Shown one piece after another: positions 1-32,922 of a DNA stretch of 64,000 nt. Location: contig DASQHX010000006.1 in NCBI GenBank assembly GCA_035631875.1, forward strand, positions 1 to 64,000. Reading direction: 5' to 3'. The DNA is from Nitrosopumilaceae archaeon. Its GTDB lineage: Archaea; Thermoproteota; Nitrososphaeria; Nitrososphaerales; Nitrosopumilaceae. Every line of letters starts with the position of its first letter. Within the stretch, counting starts at the first letter, position 1. Position numbers and translations under genes: made by a program. Below the pieces are notes generated by a model that searched no databases, was not told the origin of the DNA, and was given only the letters and a program-made list of their open reading frames with translations.

Positions 1-3000
1 ATCCAAGTTTTCGATTCAGCTGGCAACATTCGCTTCCAGTTCGGAACACTTGGTACTGACATTGGGCAATTTACCAGTCCACAAAGTATAGCTGTAGACA
101 GCTCTAACAGAATTATTGTTGCCGACACAAACAATAACCGCATCCAAGTTTTCAGCTCAGCTGGTAACCCTCTCTTCCAGTTTGGAACGTCTGGTACTGG
201 CATTGGGCAATTTAATCATCCAGACGGCATAGCAGTAGACAGCTCTAATGAAATTATTGTTGCTGACACAAACAATAACCGCATCCAGGTTTTTGATTCA
301 GCTGGCAATGTTCGTTTCCAGTTTGGAACAGCTGGTACTGGTGCTGGACAATTTACCAATCCACAAAGTGTAACAGTAGACAGCTCTAATGAAATTATTG
401 TTGCTGATACAAACAACAACCGCGTCCAAGTCTTCAGCTCAGCTGGTAACTTTCTATTCAACTTTGGAACAGCTGGTACTGGAGATGGGCAATTTTCCAG
501 TCCACAAAGTGTAGTAGACAGCTCTAATGAAATTATTGTTGCTGATACAAACAATAACCGCATCCAAGTTTTTTCAAGTCAAACACCTACTCTTACGGTA
601 AATCCAACCTCTGGTCCTCCTGGAATGCAAGTTACACTTAATGGCGATGGTTACGATCCTGGTGTACAAGTTGAGATTGATTTAATCGAGCCTAATGTAC
701 TGGTTCTTGCTGATACAACTACAGATAATTTAGGACACCTTACAGCTACGGTTGTAATTCCAGCTAATGTGATTGCACCATTTTCAGCATCAATTAGTGC
801 ACATGAAATTGCAAATCCAAGTATGACTGCAAGCATTCCGTTTAATATTATATTACCAACCATACCTCCATCTGTTTCTATTACCATATTTCCAGCTCCT
901 GCAGTGGTAGGTACACCAGAGACTCTAATTGCAAGCATAAATGATCCTGGGTGCCCGACATGTACAACATTTTCATATGCATGGACTCTGGTTTCTAGAC
1001 CCGCAGGCTCTTCATCTGCTCTGTCAGATCCTAGTGTTTCAAGTCCATCGTTTACACCAGATCTGCCTGGCGCGTATCTAGCCAGTTTGACTGTTACAGA
1101 CCAGCTTGGTGATGTCTCAGCACAAACATTTCTGACAATTTCAGCTTCATCATGTGGTACATGTGTACCAACTGTCTCACCTACCGCATCACCAAACCCA
1201 GATACAGTAGGAACTGTAGTAAATCTTGATGCAAATCCTGGTGACACTGGGTGTCCAGCTTGCATTCAATTCTTTACATATCAATGGACTCTGACAAGCC
1301 CTCCAGGCTCGTCATCTGTACTTTCAAATCCCACAATTCGCAATCCGACATTTGCACCTGATATGACTGGTACTTATCAGCTCAGCGTAATTGCAAAAGA
1401 CTCGCAAGGTCAGAACTCATCACCAATGTTCATAACAGTCTCTGCTGTTCCATCAGCATCTAAGCTGGTCTATACAGCAGGTACGGCCCAGACACTTATT
1501 GCTGGTATGGTATCAAATGCAATAACAGTACAGATGCAAGATTCTGCCGGTAACCCAGTTAACGCACCTGCTGGCGGTACAACAGTAAACCTTGATAGCA
1601 CATCAGGTGGCCAGTTCTCTGCCTCATCATCTCCATTTACTGCAGTTACGTCAGTTACAATACCAGTCGGCTCTAGTTCGATATCATTCTACTTTAAGCA
1701 CACAGAATCAGGCCATCAAATTATAACTGCATCATCTCCAGGTCTGACATCAGCTTCTACAACATTTACAGTAATAGCACCACTCTCAGTCACACCTGCA
1801 ATAGCGCCCACTCCTGTTATAGTAGGTACTACAGAAACTCTTTCTGCGAGCATAACTGATCCTAACTGTCCAACATGTAGCCCAACATCATTTTCATATG
1901 CATGGTCTCTGGTTTCTAGACCTGCGGGCTCTTTAGCTTCACTTTCAAGTACAACCTTTTTTAGTCCAACATCTATACCAGATGTACCTGGAACTTATGA
2001 TTTCAGTCTGACTGTTACAGACGGACAGGGTTTTAGCTCAGCACCTAGTGTGCTGCATGTTTTAGCTTCGCCATGTGGTACATGTGTGCCAACTGTTTCA
2101 CCTACTGCCTCACCAAATCCAGATACAGTAGGTACGGTGGTAAAACTTGATGCAAATCCAGGTGATGCTGGCTGCCCAGCTTGTATTTCATTATTTACAT
2201 ATCACTGGAGTTTGACAAGCCCGCCAAGCTCAACATCTGTACTTTCAGATCCTACTATACGCAATCCAACATTTGCACCTGATACGGCTGGTACTTATCA
2301 GCTTAGTGTGACTGCAACAGATTCAGTAGGTCATAGCTCAGTACCAATGTTCATAATAGTTTCAGGTGTTACAGCACCAATACCTCCAACGATTACAGCA
2401 CCAATCACAGTCACTCCAGGACAATCCTATATCGCCTCGGTCACTGCAAGACCGGGAATGACATATGCTTGGACCATATCTGGAGGAACAATTCCTGGTT
2501 CTGCAAATACTCCATCGATAATATTTACTGCAGGTACGACAGGTACCTTGACGCTCTCTGCTACAGAGAAAAATGCAGCAGGTGATACTAGTGCTCCCGG
2601 ATCGGTCAGTATTGCAGTTGTTGGTAATGATAATGAAAAAGGAAAAACTCTCAAAGCTAATATTTTAAAATATAATTTGGATGTAGACGTCAATGGTATC
2701 ACAACTGGTAGCAGCTGGTTTCACGAAGTAACAGGCTTGGGTAAAGATACAGATATCACTGAATACAAAGAGGGAGGAAAAAATAATGGTCCTCCAAAGC
2801 ATACCGGACCTGCAGTTATTACCAAAATAACTCTCAATGGAGAATTTGCTGCAACGACCAGCGTGCCAGATAATTATGTAAAGAATTTGTTCAAAGATAC
2901 AAAACTAAAGAATGAGAAAAATAATAATCCAACTCAGCTAAGCTCAAATGTTTTGAATATATCACTAGATTGCAATTCCATCACAGCTGGGGGAGTAACC

Positions 3001-3321
3001 TTTCAGAGAGTAACAGATCAAAACAACTTGCAGGGTAATTTTGTGATAACAAAGTTTGTTTGGTCTAACTTACTGATAAATACTGATAAGGGCAAGAATG
3101 GTTTGTCTGATTGGATTTCTGATGTGACAAATGGGAAAAATATCCGCAAAAACATCTCAATTACACTTTTGAGTTCAAATCCAAACACCGCAGGGCATGA
3201 TTATAATTTCCATGAGTGCTTTCCTTCCCAATTTAGCAACCCACGCTTTGATTCTAAAGCCTCAGATTTCGGAATGGAATCAATTACATTGCAACATGAA
3301 GGCGCAAGTAGGATTAAATAA
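1..3321 (+). CDS. Exported NHL/PKD-repeat protein with C-terminal tail-tube-like (gp19) domain; 5' end outside window
   Basis: The reading frame is open from base 1, so the true start lies upstream; 1106 residues are visible. In order: about five NHL propeller repeats (residues 1-190, each with a VADTNNNRIQVF-type strand), an IPT/Ig-like domain (about 199-290), two PKD-like domains (296-482), an Ig-like domain (486-590), a second copy of the PKD pair (594-790), another Ig-like domain, then a last domain (about 884-1106). That last domain matches the T4 gp19/phage-tail-tube family: an EVTGLGKDTDITEYKEGG block, then LSDWISDVTNGKNIRKNISI, then FDSKASDFGMESITLQHEG at the end. The PKD pair is an internal duplication of about 190 residues. 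One NHL repeat (near 508) lacks one codon relative to its neighbours. No PEFG tail is present, so anchoring is unclear. Domain calls are from motif memory; export is inferred from the domain types. Confidence 0.85.
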   Translation: MQVFDSAGNIRFQFGTLGTDIGQFTSPQSIAVDSSNRIIVADTNNNRIQVFSSAGNPLFQFGTSGTGIGQFNHPDGIAVDSSNEIIVADTNNNRIQVFDSAGNVRFQFGTAGTGAGQFTNPQSVTVDSSNEIIVADTNNNRVQVFSSAGNFLFNFGTAGTGDGQFSSPQSVVDSSNEIIVADTNNNRIQVFSSQTPTLTVNPTSGPPGMQVTLNGDGYDPGVQVEIDLIEPNVLVLADTTTDNLGHLTATVVIPANVIAPFSASISAHEIANPSMTASIPFNIILPTIPPSVSITIFPAPAVVGTPETLIASINDPGCPTCTTFSYAWTLVSRPAGSSSALSDPSVSSPSFTPDLPGAYLASLTVTDQLGDVSAQTFLTISASSCGTCVPTVSPTASPNPDTVGTVVNLDANPGDTGCPACIQFFTYQWTLTSPPGSSSVLSNPTIRNPTFAPDMTGTYQLSVIAKDSQGQNSSPMFITVSAVPSASKLVYTAGTAQTLIAGMVSNAITVQMQDSAGNPVNAPAGGTTVNLDSTSGGQFSASSSPFTAVTSVTIPVGSSSISFYFKHTESGHQIITASSPGLTSASTTFTVIAPLSVTPAIAPTPVIVGTTETLSASITDPNCPTCSPTSFSYAWSLVSRPAGSLASLSSTTFFSPTSIPDVPGTYDFSLTVTDGQGFSSAPSVLHVLASPCGTCVPTVSPTASPNPDTVGTVVKLDANPGDAGCPACISLFTYHWSLTSPPSSTSVLSDPTIRNPTFAPDTAGTYQLSVTATDSVGHSSVPMFIIVSGVTAPIPPTITAPITVTPGQSYIASVTARPGMTYAWTISGGTIPGSANTPSIIFTAGTTGTLTLSATEKNAAGDTSAPGSVSIAVVGNDNEKGKTLKANILKYNLDVDVNGITTGSSWFHEVTGLGKDTDITEYKEGGKNNGPPKHTGPAVITKITLNGEFAATTSVPDNYVKNLFKDTKLKNEKNNNPTQLSSNVLNISLDCNSITAGGVTFQRVTDQNNLQGNFVITKFVWSNLLINTDKGKNGLSDWISDVTNGKNIRKNISITLLSSNPNTAGHDYNFHECFPSQFSNPRFDSKASDFGMESITLQHEGASRIK

Positions 3322-17248: not shown

Positions 17249-17280
17249 CTTCCAAAAATGGAAAGATCATCTATAAATAT
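17249..17280 (+). promoter_or_regulatory. Shared 20-bp promoter motif plus TATA box, copy 2
   Basis: CTTCCAAAAATGGAAAGATC at 17249-17268, followed at once by TATA (CTATAAATAT, 17271-17280) and a leader GATCTGGGTTTGG like those of copies 1 and 3. The TTG at 17305 is in the position where copy 1 has its gene start. Confidence 0.8.
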
Positions 17281-23826: not shown

Positions 23827-23856
23827 TTTCCAAAAGTGAAAAGATCATTTTATATA
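23827..23856 (+). promoter_or_regulatory. Shared 20-bp promoter motif plus TATA box, copy 3
   Basis: TTTCCAAAAGTGAAAAGATC (23827-23846) abuts TATA (TTTATATAC, 23849-23857). The leader ATCATCGGGTTAGGGGTTTGG closely matches copy 1 (TCATCACGGGTTTGGGG). Confidence 0.8.
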
Positions 23857-23895
23857 CATTAGCGATCTGTCGATCATCGGGTTAGGGGTTTGGGG

Positions 23896-24636
23896 ATGAA
23901 AATAAATGGTAAATATCTTTCATTTGTATTGATAGCAGTAATTCTTATTGGCACTTCAGTTTTATCGATTCCTCAAAATGCATTTGCAACAACAAACCTT
24001 GCATCTAACGGAAGCTTTGAGAATCCAAATTCATGTAGTTCCCCATTCACCACATTAAACTCTCCTAGTACTACTATAACAGGTTGGACAGTTGGAGGTC
24101 AAAGCATTGACTGGATATGTGGTTATTGGGCGGCCTCAGATGGCACTAAAAGCATTGATTTGAGCGGTAATGCAGCAGGTTCTGTCAGTCAAGATCTTAC
24201 TACCATACCAGGGGCAACATACGCCGTAACTTTTGACATGTCAGGAAACACTGATGGTGGTAATACCATCAAACAATTGACAGCTACTGCACCTGGTTAC
24301 TCTCAGCCACATACCTATGATACAACTGGTCACCATAGTGGTACAAATTGGGTACAGCACTCTTTTTCATTTACTGCAACAGGTACTATATCCACACTAT
24401 CGTTTACAAGTAATGAATTAAATCCATATGGTCCAGCTCTAGACAATGTCAATGTAGTTTTATCTAAATGTCCTGCTGGATTTGTACCTGGAGAACGGGA
24501 TAATACATGTGTTCCATCTAATACTTCAATTCCAGAATTTCCATTTTCATTTAGCTTGGTAATAATATTTGTTGCAGTAACAGCAGTGTATCTTGGTATA
24601 AGACAAAAGATGATACCGGGCTTTAAGAGTTTTTAG
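23896..24636 (+). CDS. PEFG-CTERM protein with choice-of-anchor C / DUF642-like domain
   Basis: 246 residues from ATG 23896, which aligns with the start of 10873 relative to the shared leader; a TTG two codons upstream is also in frame. Signal peptide to about residue 33 (QNAFAT). The mature domain has NLASNGSFENPNS, TTITGWTVGGQSIDWI, GTKSIDLSGNAAGSVSQDL and YAVTFDMSGN, the galactose-binding-like choice-of-anchor C pattern. A short Cys-containing linker (KCPAGFVPGERDNTC) precedes the PEFG tail (IPEFPFSFS, helix, KMIPGFKSF). It is followed one base later by 24638, so the two form an operon. Confidence 0.87.
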   Translation: MKINGKYLSFVLIAVILIGTSVLSIPQNAFATTNLASNGSFENPNSCSSPFTTLNSPSTTITGWTVGGQSIDWICGYWAASDGTKSIDLSGNAAGSVSQDLTTIPGATYAVTFDMSGNTDGGNTIKQLTATAPGYSQPHTYDTTGHHSGTNWVQHSFSFTATGTISTLSFTSNELNPYGPALDNVNVVLSKCPAGFVPGERDNTCVPSNTSIPEFPFSFSLVIIFVAVTAVYLGIRQKMIPGFKSF

Positions 24637-29341: not shown

Positions 29342-29375
29342 TTTCCAAAAATGAAAAGATCATATGTAAATATGT
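29342..29375 (+). promoter_or_regulatory. Shared 20-bp promoter motif plus TATA-like box, copy 4
   Basis: TTTCCAAAAATGAAAAGATC (29342-29361) then ATATGTAAATATG (29362-29374) as TATA. It overlaps an upstream in-frame ATG (29351), which shows that ATG is unlikely to be the translation start of the Hcp-like gene. Confidence 0.78.
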
Positions 29376-29395
29376 CAATATTGTCTTCTTTTTTA

Positions 29396-30025
29396 ATGCA
29401 CAAAATACTTTTAGGTGCAATAATTGCAGCGGCATTTTTGCTGGCTTATCCCAGCTTGATGATACCGCAACAAAGTATTGCCCAAACAACAGATCAGAGT
29501 ACAAGTACAGGCGGGACAACAGGTAGTGTACTGCAATGCAACACATCAACTCGCGCAGGGGTATCTATGACAATAGATGGATTAAATGGAGTAAATGGAA
29601 GCCCATGCGTATTTGAGATAAAGGATTGGAGCTTTGGTGTAGAAAATCCAACTACAATAGGCTCTGCAACAGGAGGTGCTGGTGCTGGCAAGGTCAGCTT
29701 CCATGATATTCACATCACAAAGACGACGGATAGCGCATCACCAACTTTGTTTCTAAATTCTGCAACTGGCGCACACTACAAAACAGTTACCATCCAAATG
29801 CGAAAGGCTGGCGGTGATCAACACTCAGCATTCTTAAAGTTCACCTTTGGTACTGTCTTTACTACAAAAATCGACTGGAGTGGACCTGGAGATGAAGGGC
29901 CGGAGGAATCAATCACCTTTGTCTATGGATCACTTGGAGTACAATACATACCACAAAGTACTGATGGTACAGTTGGTACGCCTATAACAAATTGCTTTGA
30001 TTCTGTACGAAACACAATTTGTTAG
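29396..30025 (+). CDS. Exported Hcp-family (type VI secretion tube-like) protein
   Basis: 209 residues from ATG 29396, chosen because the in-frame ATG at 29351 lies inside the promoter motif and because MHKILLGAIIAAAFLLAYP...SIAQ is a clean signal peptide. The mature domain matches Hcp along its length: EIKDWSFGVENP, GGAGAGKVSFHDIHITKTTD, SPTLFLNSATGAHYKTVTIQ, MRKAGGDQHSAFLKFTF, EESITFVYGSLGVQYIPQ. Hcp proteins form hexameric rings and tubes. No sheath, baseplate or ClpV gene is in the window, so a secreted tube or ring, or a domesticated surface protein, is more likely than a canonical T6SS. The N-terminal leader after the signal is Thr/Ser/Gly rich, and two C-terminal Cys may form a disulphide. 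Confidence 0.88.
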   Translation: MHKILLGAIIAAAFLLAYPSLMIPQQSIAQTTDQSTSTGGTTGSVLQCNTSTRAGVSMTIDGLNGVNGSPCVFEIKDWSFGVENPTTIGSATGGAGAGKVSFHDIHITKTTDSASPTLFLNSATGAHYKTVTIQMRKAGGDQHSAFLKFTFGTVFTTKIDWSGPGDEGPEESITFVYGSLGVQYIPQSTDGTVGTPITNCFDSVRNTIC

Positions 30026-30147: not shown

Positions 30148-30927
30148 TCACACTTGTTCAAAATGGCGTAAATCAGGAGAAGTAACATCTTCCTTTTTCC
30201 ATAGTTTTCTATCTTTTAGACATTGTCTCTGTTCGTCGTTTACTGGAAGATCATGTTCAATGAACACAGGAATATCTTTTACACCTAGTTCATCTGCTGC
30301 AACAGCTCTGTGTCTGCCATCATGATAAACAAACCGGCATTTTACCAAATCCAATTTTAGAAATGTGGCATCTTGCGGCTTGCATTTTTCAATTCTTTTT
30401 CGTTTGTGTTTTACAATCAATTCAGTAGTTCGTACTTCATCTTCTGTTCTCTTTTCAATAATTTCTCCCGCAAAAGCATAGTTGAGAAACTCGGATGGTT
30501 TCATTGTGGTATAAAGCAGTCTACCTGCACCAGCGTCTTTGGGGAAATTGGCATGAAACCCACCTGTCCTACTTCCTTCTTCGATGAAATAATTGGGATC
30601 ATTTCTTTTTATTGCAGGAACTGGAATGCTTGGGGTCCATACGTGATTTTTTCTCTTCTTTCCTTTCTTTTTGCACATTCCATCAAGCCTTCTCTGAAAC
30701 ATTTCAGTAATAGATGATGGAGAGGATTCTAATGTTTCTAGCATACGTTCTGCCTCTGATCGTAATGGAACTGTTGCAAGATATCTTTTAGAAGAAAGAC
30801 CGTATTTCTTTTTGTAAATCTTTTCCATAACATCAAGTAACTTACAATCATTTAGCCGGTTAAGAAAAACATCATTACGCTTTTTGGTTATTTTTGCTTT
30901 TTTCTTTCTCTTTGTACCATCAGCCAC
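30148..30927 (-). CDS. ParB-like domain protein
   Basis: 259 residues, very basic N-terminus (KRKKKAKITKKRN). The C-terminal part holds LDLVKCRFVYHDGRHRAVAADELGVKDIPVFIEHD, the DGRHR...A...LG...IPV signature of the ParB/sulfiredoxin fold, in which the Arg-His-Arg segment binds CTP or ATP. The middle (GSRTGGFHANFPKDAGAGRLLYTTM) is unassigned. It could be a DNA-binding CTPase or a small nuclease-like protein. No parA partner adjoins; the MinD-like gene is 14 kb away. Confidence 0.65.
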   Translation of the reverse strand: MADGTKRKKKAKITKKRNDVFLNRLNDCKLLDVMEKIYKKKYGLSSKRYLATVPLRSEAERMLETLESSPSSITEMFQRRLDGMCKKKGKKRKNHVWTPSIPVPAIKRNDPNYFIEEGSRTGGFHANFPKDAGAGRLLYTTMKPSEFLNYAFAGEIIEKRTEDEVRTTELIVKHKRKRIEKCKPQDATFLKLDLVKCRFVYHDGRHRAVAADELGVKDIPVFIEHDLPVNDEQRQCLKDRKLWKKEDVTSPDLRHFEQV

Positions 30928-31032: not shown

Positions 31033-32922
31033 CTAAACTATTATGATGCCATTATCAATCAAATACTGAATTCCTTTTACAAATTCATCATCAGATATCT
31101 GATCATTTGCCCACCAACCAGCATCATTTTTTATCCACTGTGGTATTTGGCCAGGTTGTAATGATGTGTACTGAACAGTTTGAGGAATTTTGATTATTTT
31201 CTGTTGAATAAGGTATTGTATTCCTTTCATAAAATCAGAATTTCCAACATGTCCGTATGCCCACCATCCTGCAGTGAGTTTTACCCATGCTGGAATGGAA
31301 ATAGTCTTTGATTCTTGGGATGTTTTGCTTGGAAAGACTGGTATTGATGGTTCATTATTGGTATGTGCTGTATTATTTGCAAGTTTCGTAAATTGTGCAA
31401 CTGTCATGTTTGAAAATATATCGTAGAAGACACGGATTGGAAGAACTTTTCCATTTTTAAATATTAAATATTGTGCAGCATCGTATGTGTTATTAAAATA
31501 CGGAGAATATGATGGAGACATTACTGTTACCATCTCTCCATATGGATTTTGCTGCATGATATTTGAAACAGTCGGCGGAACTAACATGTTAAGATAGAAT
31601 TGTTTATGCAATTGGACTCCGTTAACTGAGAAGGTAATCGTTCCATTGTGCCAACCACTTGATGCGTTAGGTAAAATCACAAGCGATATTGGGAGTGTTT
31701 GATCACCTTGTTGAATATTTATGGCCGAACCTGATTGTAAAACAAGCCAATCTAGTTGATTTGAGATATTAACTAAAACTCCATTCAAGTTCTGGTTGCT
31801 GCTAAAATTTAGAGGGAGAGAAGCACCTGGAAATGCCCCAACGCTAAATGATGGTGGATTCCAAATAATTGCTGTTGATGCAATTGTTGTGTTATTAGCC
31901 TGAATTTCCTTTGCAACAGGCTCGATAGTTGATATTGTATAATTCTCATCTACAGTATTCTTAATAATTGAGATTGAATCATTATAGTTGTTAACCACAT
32001 ATTCCAAATTTCTTTCTGTATCAACAGCTACCTTGGAAGGGGCCATATCCATCTTGATTGTAGCCACAACAGTATTCTTGAATCCATCAATTACTGATAC
32101 ACCATCATATGAGGAAGATACATAGATTGTATTTGTTATGGGATTAACGGTTATTTCATGTGGATAGCCAGTCACTTGGATATTTCCAACTACCTTATTG
32201 GTATTACCATCTATGACGGAAACAGAATTATCATTTTGATTTGCAACATATATCTTGTCTGTTGTGGGATTTACAGATATTCCATAAGCTCCTTTGCCCA
32301 CAAAGACTTCGTCTACAATCTTATTCGTGGTTCCATTAATTACATAAACTGAATCTGTCTTTCCTTGTAATGCGCCAGTTCTTGAATTTGTAACGTAAAT
32401 CATATTGGTATTTGGATTGACAGTTACAAAAACTGGGTTGATTGCCTTAATCTTATCCACTATCTGGTTTGTCGTTCCCTTTATGATGTAAATTGATACA
32501 TCTGAGACAGGATTGACGACATAAACCGTATTGGTAATTGGATTGACAGCAACATCACATGAACATAAACCAGTTTCAAATTGGCCTGTTACAGCATTCT
32601 TGTTTCCATCTATGACAGATACCTTATTTGTCAAATCATCAACGTAAATGGTATTTGTTTTTTCATTGATTGCTATTCTGTTGGCATCGTAACCAACATC
32701 GATTTTACTAATTATGTTAGTGGTACTTCCATTAATTACGTATACTTGACCAGAATGAGTACTCATGTAAATTAAATGAGTTTTTGAATTAACGGCAATT
32801 CCAGATGCTTGCTCATCTGTATGCCCCATAGTGTCTAAAGTATACGCAAATACATTATCTGCAAACAAAGAAACTAGTATGAGATTCAGGATAACCAAGG
32901 TTACCAACGAAAGATATGGCAT
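31033..32922 (-). CDS. Secreted YVTN-propeller protein with C-terminal WW-A/GIxYLI repeats
   Basis: 629 residues. Signal peptide (about 1-26, DNVFAY). Residues about 30-330 are seven or so YVTN repeats (IAVNSKTHLIYMSTHSGQVYVINGST; VNPITNTIYVSSSYDGVSVIDG). An Ig-like domain (about 350-455) follows, then a variable region. Two copies of a thaumarchaeal C-terminal repeat end the protein (about 543-580 WVKLTAGWWAYGHVGNSDFM..GIQYLIQ and 598-629 WIKNDAGWWANDQISDDEF..GIQYLID). Such repeats are common at the ends of thaumarchaeal exported proteins, possibly binding envelope material. It shares promoter module B with 25532. Confidence 0.85.
   Translation of the reverse strand: MPYLSLVTLVILNLILVSLFADNVFAYTLDTMGHTDEQASGIAVNSKTHLIYMSTHSGQVYVINGSTTNIISKIDVGYDANRIAINEKTNTIYVDDLTNKVSVIDGNKNAVTGQFETGLCSCDVAVNPITNTVYVVNPVSDVSIYIIKGTTNQIVDKIKAINPVFVTVNPNTNMIYVTNSRTGALQGKTDSVYVINGTTNKIVDEVFVGKGAYGISVNPTTDKIYVANQNDNSVSVIDGNTNKVVGNIQVTGYPHEITVNPITNTIYVSSSYDGVSVIDGFKNTVVATIKMDMAPSKVAVDTERNLEYVVNNYNDSISIIKNTVDENYTISTIEPVAKEIQANNTTIASTAIIWNPPSFSVGAFPGASLPLNFSSNQNLNGVLVNISNQLDWLVLQSGSAINIQQGDQTLPISLVILPNASSGWHNGTITFSVNGVQLHKQFYLNMLVPPTVSNIMQQNPYGEMVTVMSPSYSPYFNNTYDAAQYLIFKNGKVLPIRVFYDIFSNMTVAQFTKLANNTAHTNNEPSIPVFPSKTSQESKTISIPAWVKLTAGWWAYGHVGNSDFMKGIQYLIQQKIIKIPQTVQYTSLQPGQIPQWIKNDAGWWANDQISDDEFVKGIQYLIDNGIIIV

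What the first reader, a model, noticed from the sequence alone, without database searches (positions are those of the whole stretch)
29342..30025. Exported Hcp-family tube protein in an archaeon without visible T6SS genes
Seen: nearly every conserved Hcp block (GGAGAGKVSFHDIHITK, FLNSATGAHYK, MRKAGGDQ, EESITFVYGSLGVQYIPQ) behind a clean signal peptide. Known: Hcp normally has no signal peptide and leaves the cell through the contractile T6SS. Here it would be exported by the general route under a promoter shared with envelope-sorted PEFG proteins. Inference: an extracellular ring or tube made independently of a contractile machine.
Basis: partly seen in the sequence, partly recalled or inferred. 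Interest (0 to 1): 0.75.

Follow-up and report, generated by a model that had tools for sequence, protein, structure and literature searches.

The report
Exported tube protein without its machine
This archaeon carries a gene descended from the inner-tube protein of a bacterial injection machine, but the gene has gained a signal for ordinary export and the machine is absent, so the protein probably works as a building block outside the cell.

Summary
The gene is real: an Hcp-fold protein (PF05638, 81 bits; AlphaFold model matches solved Hcps) behind a signal peptide. The genome, 99.99% complete, has no TssB, TssC, gp25 or sheath above cut-off, and TssC is absent from 300 of 300 genomes of the class. 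The protein is not unique: this genome has five Hcp genes, 23 of 300 class genomes have at least one, and every intact copy read starts with a signal-peptide-like segment. Several are fused to extracellular modules, and eight genomes carry a same-strand pair of a short and a longer Hcp gene. The nearest bacterial relatives (54% identical) are cytosolic tube proteins inside T6SS loci, so the likeliest history is capture of a bacterial Hcp, loss of the machine and gain of a signal peptide. In sampled bacteria, Hcp without a signal peptide goes with TssC (33 of 36 genomes) and Hcp with one does not (0 of 7). The hcp promoter element occurs three times in the genome, each upstream of an exported gene. 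Export without a machine is well supported. Rings or tubes outside the cell are inferred and untested.

The parts
29351..30025 (+). hcp gene, maximal ORF of 224 aa; likely true CDS is 29396-30025 (209 aa, start at Met16)
   Evidence: start choice from orthologues L047 and L071 and from the shared promoter region
29396..29482 (+). signal peptide MHKILLGAIIAAAFLLAYPSLMIPQQSIA, predicted cleavage SIA|QTTD
   Evidence: read from the sequence; -3/-1 rule kept in four orthologues; hydrophobic segment score
29609..29947 (+). Hcp domain (PF05638, residues 87-199)
   Evidence: AlphaFold pLDDT mostly about 86-96 outside the loop and tails; Foldseek to Hcps
29639..29707 (+). extended loop (residues 97-119, with NPTTIGSATGGAGAGKV), the ring-stacking loop in T6SS Hcps
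   Evidence: 73% identical to the T6SS Hcp L072 against 55% over the domain, permutation p=0.034; NPTTIGSATGGAGAGK identical in all four orthologues; role of the loop from PMC5874247 and PMC4469607
29343..29363 (+). promoter element TTCCAAAAATGAAAAGATCAT, followed by a TATA-like ATGTAAATAT (29364-29373)
   Evidence: three copies in the genome; 66-98 bp around it 74-77% identical to the other two
23828..23848 (+). second copy of the promoter element, upstream of the exported choice-of-anchor C gene
17250..17270 (+). third copy of the promoter element, upstream of an exported PDFPF-tailed gene
23890..24636 (+). exported DUF642 / choice-of-anchor C protein with a PEF-type C-terminal sorting tail; shares the hcp promoter element
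   Evidence: Pfam DUF642, TIGR04362 171.5 bits
17403..18323 (+). exported protein with PDFPF C-terminal sorting tail; shares the hcp promoter element
   Evidence: no Pfam family
3091..3303 (+). gp19/Pvc1-like tail-tube domain at the C-terminus of a large NHL/PKD surface-type protein (frame 4-3321, cut by the contig start); a second tube-fold family in the same window
   Evidence: PF06841 63 bits; Pvc1 E=6e-6; PHROG tail tube E=3e-6

Best explanation
The gene encodes the tube-protein fold of a bacterial T6SS, most likely gained by lateral transfer and refitted for life outside the cell. Shown by sequence: an Hcp domain, a signal-peptide-like N-terminus, no TssB, TssC, gp25 or sheath above cut-off in the genome, orthologues kept under purifying selection, four conserved cysteines that the nearest T6SS relative lacks at those places, and a promoter element shared with two other exported genes. 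Inferred: the protein leaves through the general (Sec) route, folds outside with one or two disulphides, and assembles into rings, perhaps stacked into short tubes, using the kept stacking loop, as a surface or matrix building block. By analogy with the paralogous gene pairs, the short Hcps would be the bulk subunit and the long fusions with Ig, HYR, TSP3, collagen-like or propeller modules would anchor or decorate the assembly.
For: Fold. Signal peptide in this protein and in every intact Nitrososphaeria Hcp read. No machine; TssC 0 of 300 in the class. Origin: the nearest bacterial relative, 54% identical, lies next to TssC in a T6SS locus, and the window clade sits in a starred (95) clade of 18 rows with 11 cytosolic bacterial Hcps. 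Association in sampled bacteria: TssC with 33 of 36 cytosolic Hcps and 0 of 7 exported Hcps, Fisher p=3.7e-6. Purifying selection: dN 0.21-0.28 against dS 0.39-0.73. Stacking loop kept. Fusions to extracellular modules and eight short + longer same-strand pairs. Cysteines 63, 86, 215, 224 conserved in the full-length orthologues and absent at those places in L072.
Against: No direct test of oligomer or location. The signal peptide rests on pattern and hydrophobicity, not on SignalP or proteomics. The extended loop has only moderate model confidence (58-81). This hcp stands alone, not in a short + long pair. dN/dS is moderate (about 0.4-0.5). The N- and C-terminal regions vary, and the C-terminal lysines needed for EvpC secretion are missing.
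Confidence: 0.55

Rival explanations
1. The protein is exported, but the Hcp fold now serves only as a stable beta-barrel module for binding or adhesion, as a monomer or single ring; no tube forms.
For: Fusions put the Hcp domain at one end of long Ig/HYR/propeller proteins, where long tubes would be hard to pack. Many paralogues have lost the GAGK loop (L002, L012, L025, L033).
Against: In the window clade the stacking loop and beta-6 are the best conserved parts, more than a bare barrel needs.
Confidence: 0.3
2. The protein is the ordinary tube of a T6SS or eCIS encoded elsewhere in the genome.
For: Three relatives (G084, G135, G216) do carry sheath and gp25 genes, and G135 and G084 also carry gp19 tube genes.
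Against: None of TssB, TssC, gp25 or a sheath above cut-off in this 99.99% complete genome. In G084 and G135 those genes lie far from hcp, with a gp19 tube gene of their own. A cytosolic tube would not need a signal peptide.
Confidence: 0.03
3. The gene is a decaying passenger left over from lateral transfer, without function.
For: Patchy distribution (23 of 300 genomes), one frameshifted copy in G108, different neighbours in each genome.
Against: Four orthologues keep the frame, signal peptide and core motifs; dN well below dS; promoter element shared with two exported genes.
Confidence: 0.06
4. The protein is a secreted antagonist or effector, not a structural part, as secreted Hcps in some bacteria are said to act on host cells.
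For: Secreted Hcp is reported to bind macrophages through the extended loop (PMC5874247).
Against: No toxin domain, no neighbouring immunity-type gene, no catalytic motif; neighbours are an alpha/beta hydrolase and a convergent gene without a Pfam family.
Confidence: 0.06

Closest known systems
TssD/Hcp tube protein of bacterial T6SS (PF05638; nearest here L072, Planctomycetia)
   Same: Fold, GAGK stacking loop, 54% identity over residues 87-221
   Different: L072 is cytosolic and encoded next to TssC; the window protein has a signal peptide, four cysteines and no machine
Bacterial Hcp genes with PEP-CTERM sorting signals (mentioned and excluded in PMC8262886)
   Same: Hcp domain with an export/sorting signal
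   Different: The window protein has no C-terminal sorting tail; no function for the bacterial ones was found in the text read
Exported Hcps of Verrucomicrobia and Actinobacteria (L084, L087, L126, L079, L120, L093)
   Same: Signal peptide, no TssC in the genome, often two genes in a row
   Different: Most lie in other parts of the Hcp tree; found here, no description located
gp19/Pvc1 tail-tube proteins of contractile injection systems and phage
   Same: Related use of a tube fold; a gp19-like domain sits in a surface-type protein of the same window
   Different: Another Pfam family (PF06841), and no sheath gene above cut-off in this genome

Membership tests
T6SS tube protein (TssD/Hcp) | PF05638 domain and Hcp fold | tested here: met
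   81 bits vs 23.5; Foldseek E=5.6e-13 to Hcps
T6SS tube protein (TssD/Hcp) | NCBIfam TIGR03344 cut-off (58.9 bits) | tested here: not met
   32.9 bits; but T6SS-linked relatives L072 and L073 also fail (31.0, 33.7), so the model is too narrow for this subfamily
T6SS tube protein (TssD/Hcp) | Cytosolic, no signal peptide | tested here: not met
   Signal-peptide pattern in all four orthologues
T6SS tube protein (TssD/Hcp) | Sheath TssB/TssC encoded in the genome | tested here: not met
   PF05943 and PF05591 none in G000; TssC 0 of 300 in the class
T6SS tube protein (TssD/Hcp) | Hexameric rings that stack into a tube | not testable with these tools
   Only the monomer could be modelled; loop conservation is suggestive
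eCIS or phage tail tube | Sheath and baseplate (gp25) genes with a gp19-type tube | tested here: not met
   No gp25 and no sheath over cut-off in G000; the one gp19 domain is fused to a surface-type protein
PEFG/PEP-CTERM sorted proteins | C-terminal sorting tail with a transmembrane segment | tested here: not met
   The C-terminus reads TPITNCFDSVRNTIC, with no tail
Signal-peptide Hcps without T6SS (grouping proposed here) | Signal peptide, Hcp domain, no TssC in the genome | tested here: met
   same combination in the other Nitrososphaeria and in seven bacterial genomes

The most novel reading that the evidence does not exclude
Nitrososphaeria and some Verrucomicrobia build a machine-free extracellular filament or ring array from Hcp: a short exported Hcp as the main subunit and a long exported Hcp with Ig or propeller modules as anchor or tip, derived more than once from T6SS tube proteins. 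It would be a new class of archaeal surface structure.
Probability: 0.3. Interest if true: 0.82.

Novelty: new variant of a known kind. Interest (0 to 1): 0.6.

Why it matters
Hcp is often read as a sign of a T6SS; here it is not, and archaeal genomes annotated with 'T6SS tube protein' need rereading. If the exported proteins polymerise, the tube of an injection machine has become a free-standing surface structure, the reverse of the usual picture in which the tube works only inside a contractile sheath. The prediction is simple to test with one recombinant protein.

Tried and rejected
A broad alignment of 19 archaeal Hcps could not be used for the genome scan (no conserved stretch). Viral origin: the IMG/VR pattern scan found no relatives. 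A single archaeal origin is neither shown nor firmly rejected: the free tree needs several gains or losses (seven changes, at least two forced by starred branches), but the AU test gives p=0.059. Cysteine enrichment as a general mark of exported Hcps failed (0.88 per domain in archaea vs 1.63 in bacteria), so the disulphide argument is kept only for the window clade. AlphaFold of the gp19-like domain failed for lack of relatives (pLDDT 29). The literature searches gave no description of archaeal exported Hcp; the library holds open-licence papers only. The tubule-like structures of Nitrososphaera viennensis (PMC4129164) are cytoplasmic and were not used as evidence.

Full report
The observation. 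Pfam assigns T6SS_HCP at 81 bits. The AlphaFold model is confident across most of the domain and finds solved Hcps as its best matches. The orthologue L047 starts at the equivalent Met, L071 has its Met there with unrelated residues upstream, and the bases around 29351 belong to a promoter region shared with two other genes. From Met16 the N-terminus is a compact signal peptide that ends SIA|Q, and the same -3/-1 pattern holds in all four orthologues.

The promoter claim. TTCCAAAA[AG]TG[AG]AAAGATCAT occurs three times in the genome, all on the + strand of this window, at 17250, 23828 and 29343. Around it 66-98 bp are 74-77% identical (E=6e-12 and 1e-7), and a TATA-like stretch follows. One of the other two genes is a DUF642 / choice-of-anchor C exported protein; both have PEF- or PDF-type tails. 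So hcp is probably expressed with surface proteins (inference).

No machine. The assembly is 99.99% complete. TssC, TssB and gp25 are absent and no sheath gene reaches the cut-off. TssC is absent from all 300 sampled genomes of the class. Three relatives have sheath and gp25 genes; in G084 and G135 they lie far from the hcp genes. VgrG, ClpV, TssK and TssF were not searched.

A family, not one gene. This genome has five Hcp genes, and 23 of 300 class genomes have at least one. All intact archaeal copies read begin with a signal-peptide-like segment; the copies a simple filter missed have it further upstream, and one copy is frameshifted. One copy outside the class also looks exported (L154). 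Eight genomes have a short Hcp and a longer Hcp gene in a row on one strand; in this genome the gap is 100 bp. Five long proteins scanned carry Ig, HYR, TSP3, FIMAH-like or propeller modules, and another copy is collagen-like. A similar two-gene layout occurs in Verrucomicrobia and one actinobacterium.

Origin. The nearest bacterial relative of the window clade, L072, is 54% identical, has no signal peptide, and lies 122 bp downstream of a TssC gene in a T6SS locus. The window clade falls in a starred (95) clade of 18 rows with 11 cytosolic bacterial Hcps. Whether Hcp entered the archaea once or several times is open (AU p=0.059). In sampled bacteria TssC accompanies 33 of 36 Hcps without a signal peptide and 0 of 7 with one (p=3.7e-6). 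Two Planctomycete multi-domain proteins were left out of that count, the genomes are not independent, and many are MAGs of unknown completeness.

Mechanism. Orthologues show dN 0.21-0.28 against dS 0.39-0.73. The extended loop that stacks rings in T6SS Hcps (PMC5874247, PMC4469607) and strand beta-6 are among the best kept parts, 73% and 80% identical to L072 against 55% over the domain; permutation p=0.034 for the loop. Four cysteines are conserved in the full-length orthologues and absent at those places in L072. This fits an exported, folded, possibly ring-forming protein. Assembly outside the cell is inference; I put it at somewhat over one half, and a tube specifically at about one third.

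A second tube fold in the window. The protein ending at 3321 has NHL and PKD repeats and ends in a gp19/Pvc1-like tail-tube domain (63 bits). Its N-terminus is cut off by the contig start, so its own export signal was not seen. Two Pfam tube families in surface-type proteins of one window suggest that tube folds are reused as extracellular modules. A metaproteomic study of Accumulibacter granules (PMC12019908) also lists gp19- and T6SS_HCP-domain proteins together in the secretome as likely tubular subunits.

Novelty. Hcp genes with PEP-CTERM signals were mentioned and excluded in PMC8262886. I found no description of the archaeal family, the short + long pairs, or the split between exported Hcp and TssC.

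Noticed in passing
window 4-3321 (+): Large NHL/PKD protein, cut by the contig start, with a gp19/Pvc1-like tail-tube domain at its C-terminus (PF06841, 63 bits); a tube fold used in a surface-type protein with no sheath gene above cut-off in the genome.
   Followed up: partly
G000 C10:297772-298813 (L034 10225-12985): Two-gene array of a short exported Hcp and a long exported Hcp fused to Ig-like domains, 100 bp apart; similar short + longer pairs in seven other Nitrososphaeria genomes.
   Followed up: partly
L084, L087, L126, L079: Verrucomicrobia and an actinobacterium carry two exported Hcps in a row and no TssC in the genome.
   Followed up: partly
window 31033-32922 (-): Propeller-type exported protein ending in WIKNDAGWW... 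repeats; similar repeats are fused to Hcp domains in L006, L007, L016 and L025.
   Followed up: no
window 30148-30927 (-) and L035 2417-3280: A ParB-like looking gene (no Pfam hit for the window copy) beside this hcp, and another ParB-like gene beside the hcp at C10:310 kb.
   Followed up: no
L074, L122, L123: A Chloroflexi MAG and two Actinomycetes have Hcps without an evident signal peptide and no TssC in the genome; orphan cytosolic Hcps or incomplete genomes.
   Followed up: no
G084 C3, G135 C1:413-428 kb, G216: Nitrososphaeria genomes with phage-sheath and gp25 genes (G084 and G135 also gp19): proviruses or eCIS, with no visible link to their exported Hcps.
   Followed up: no
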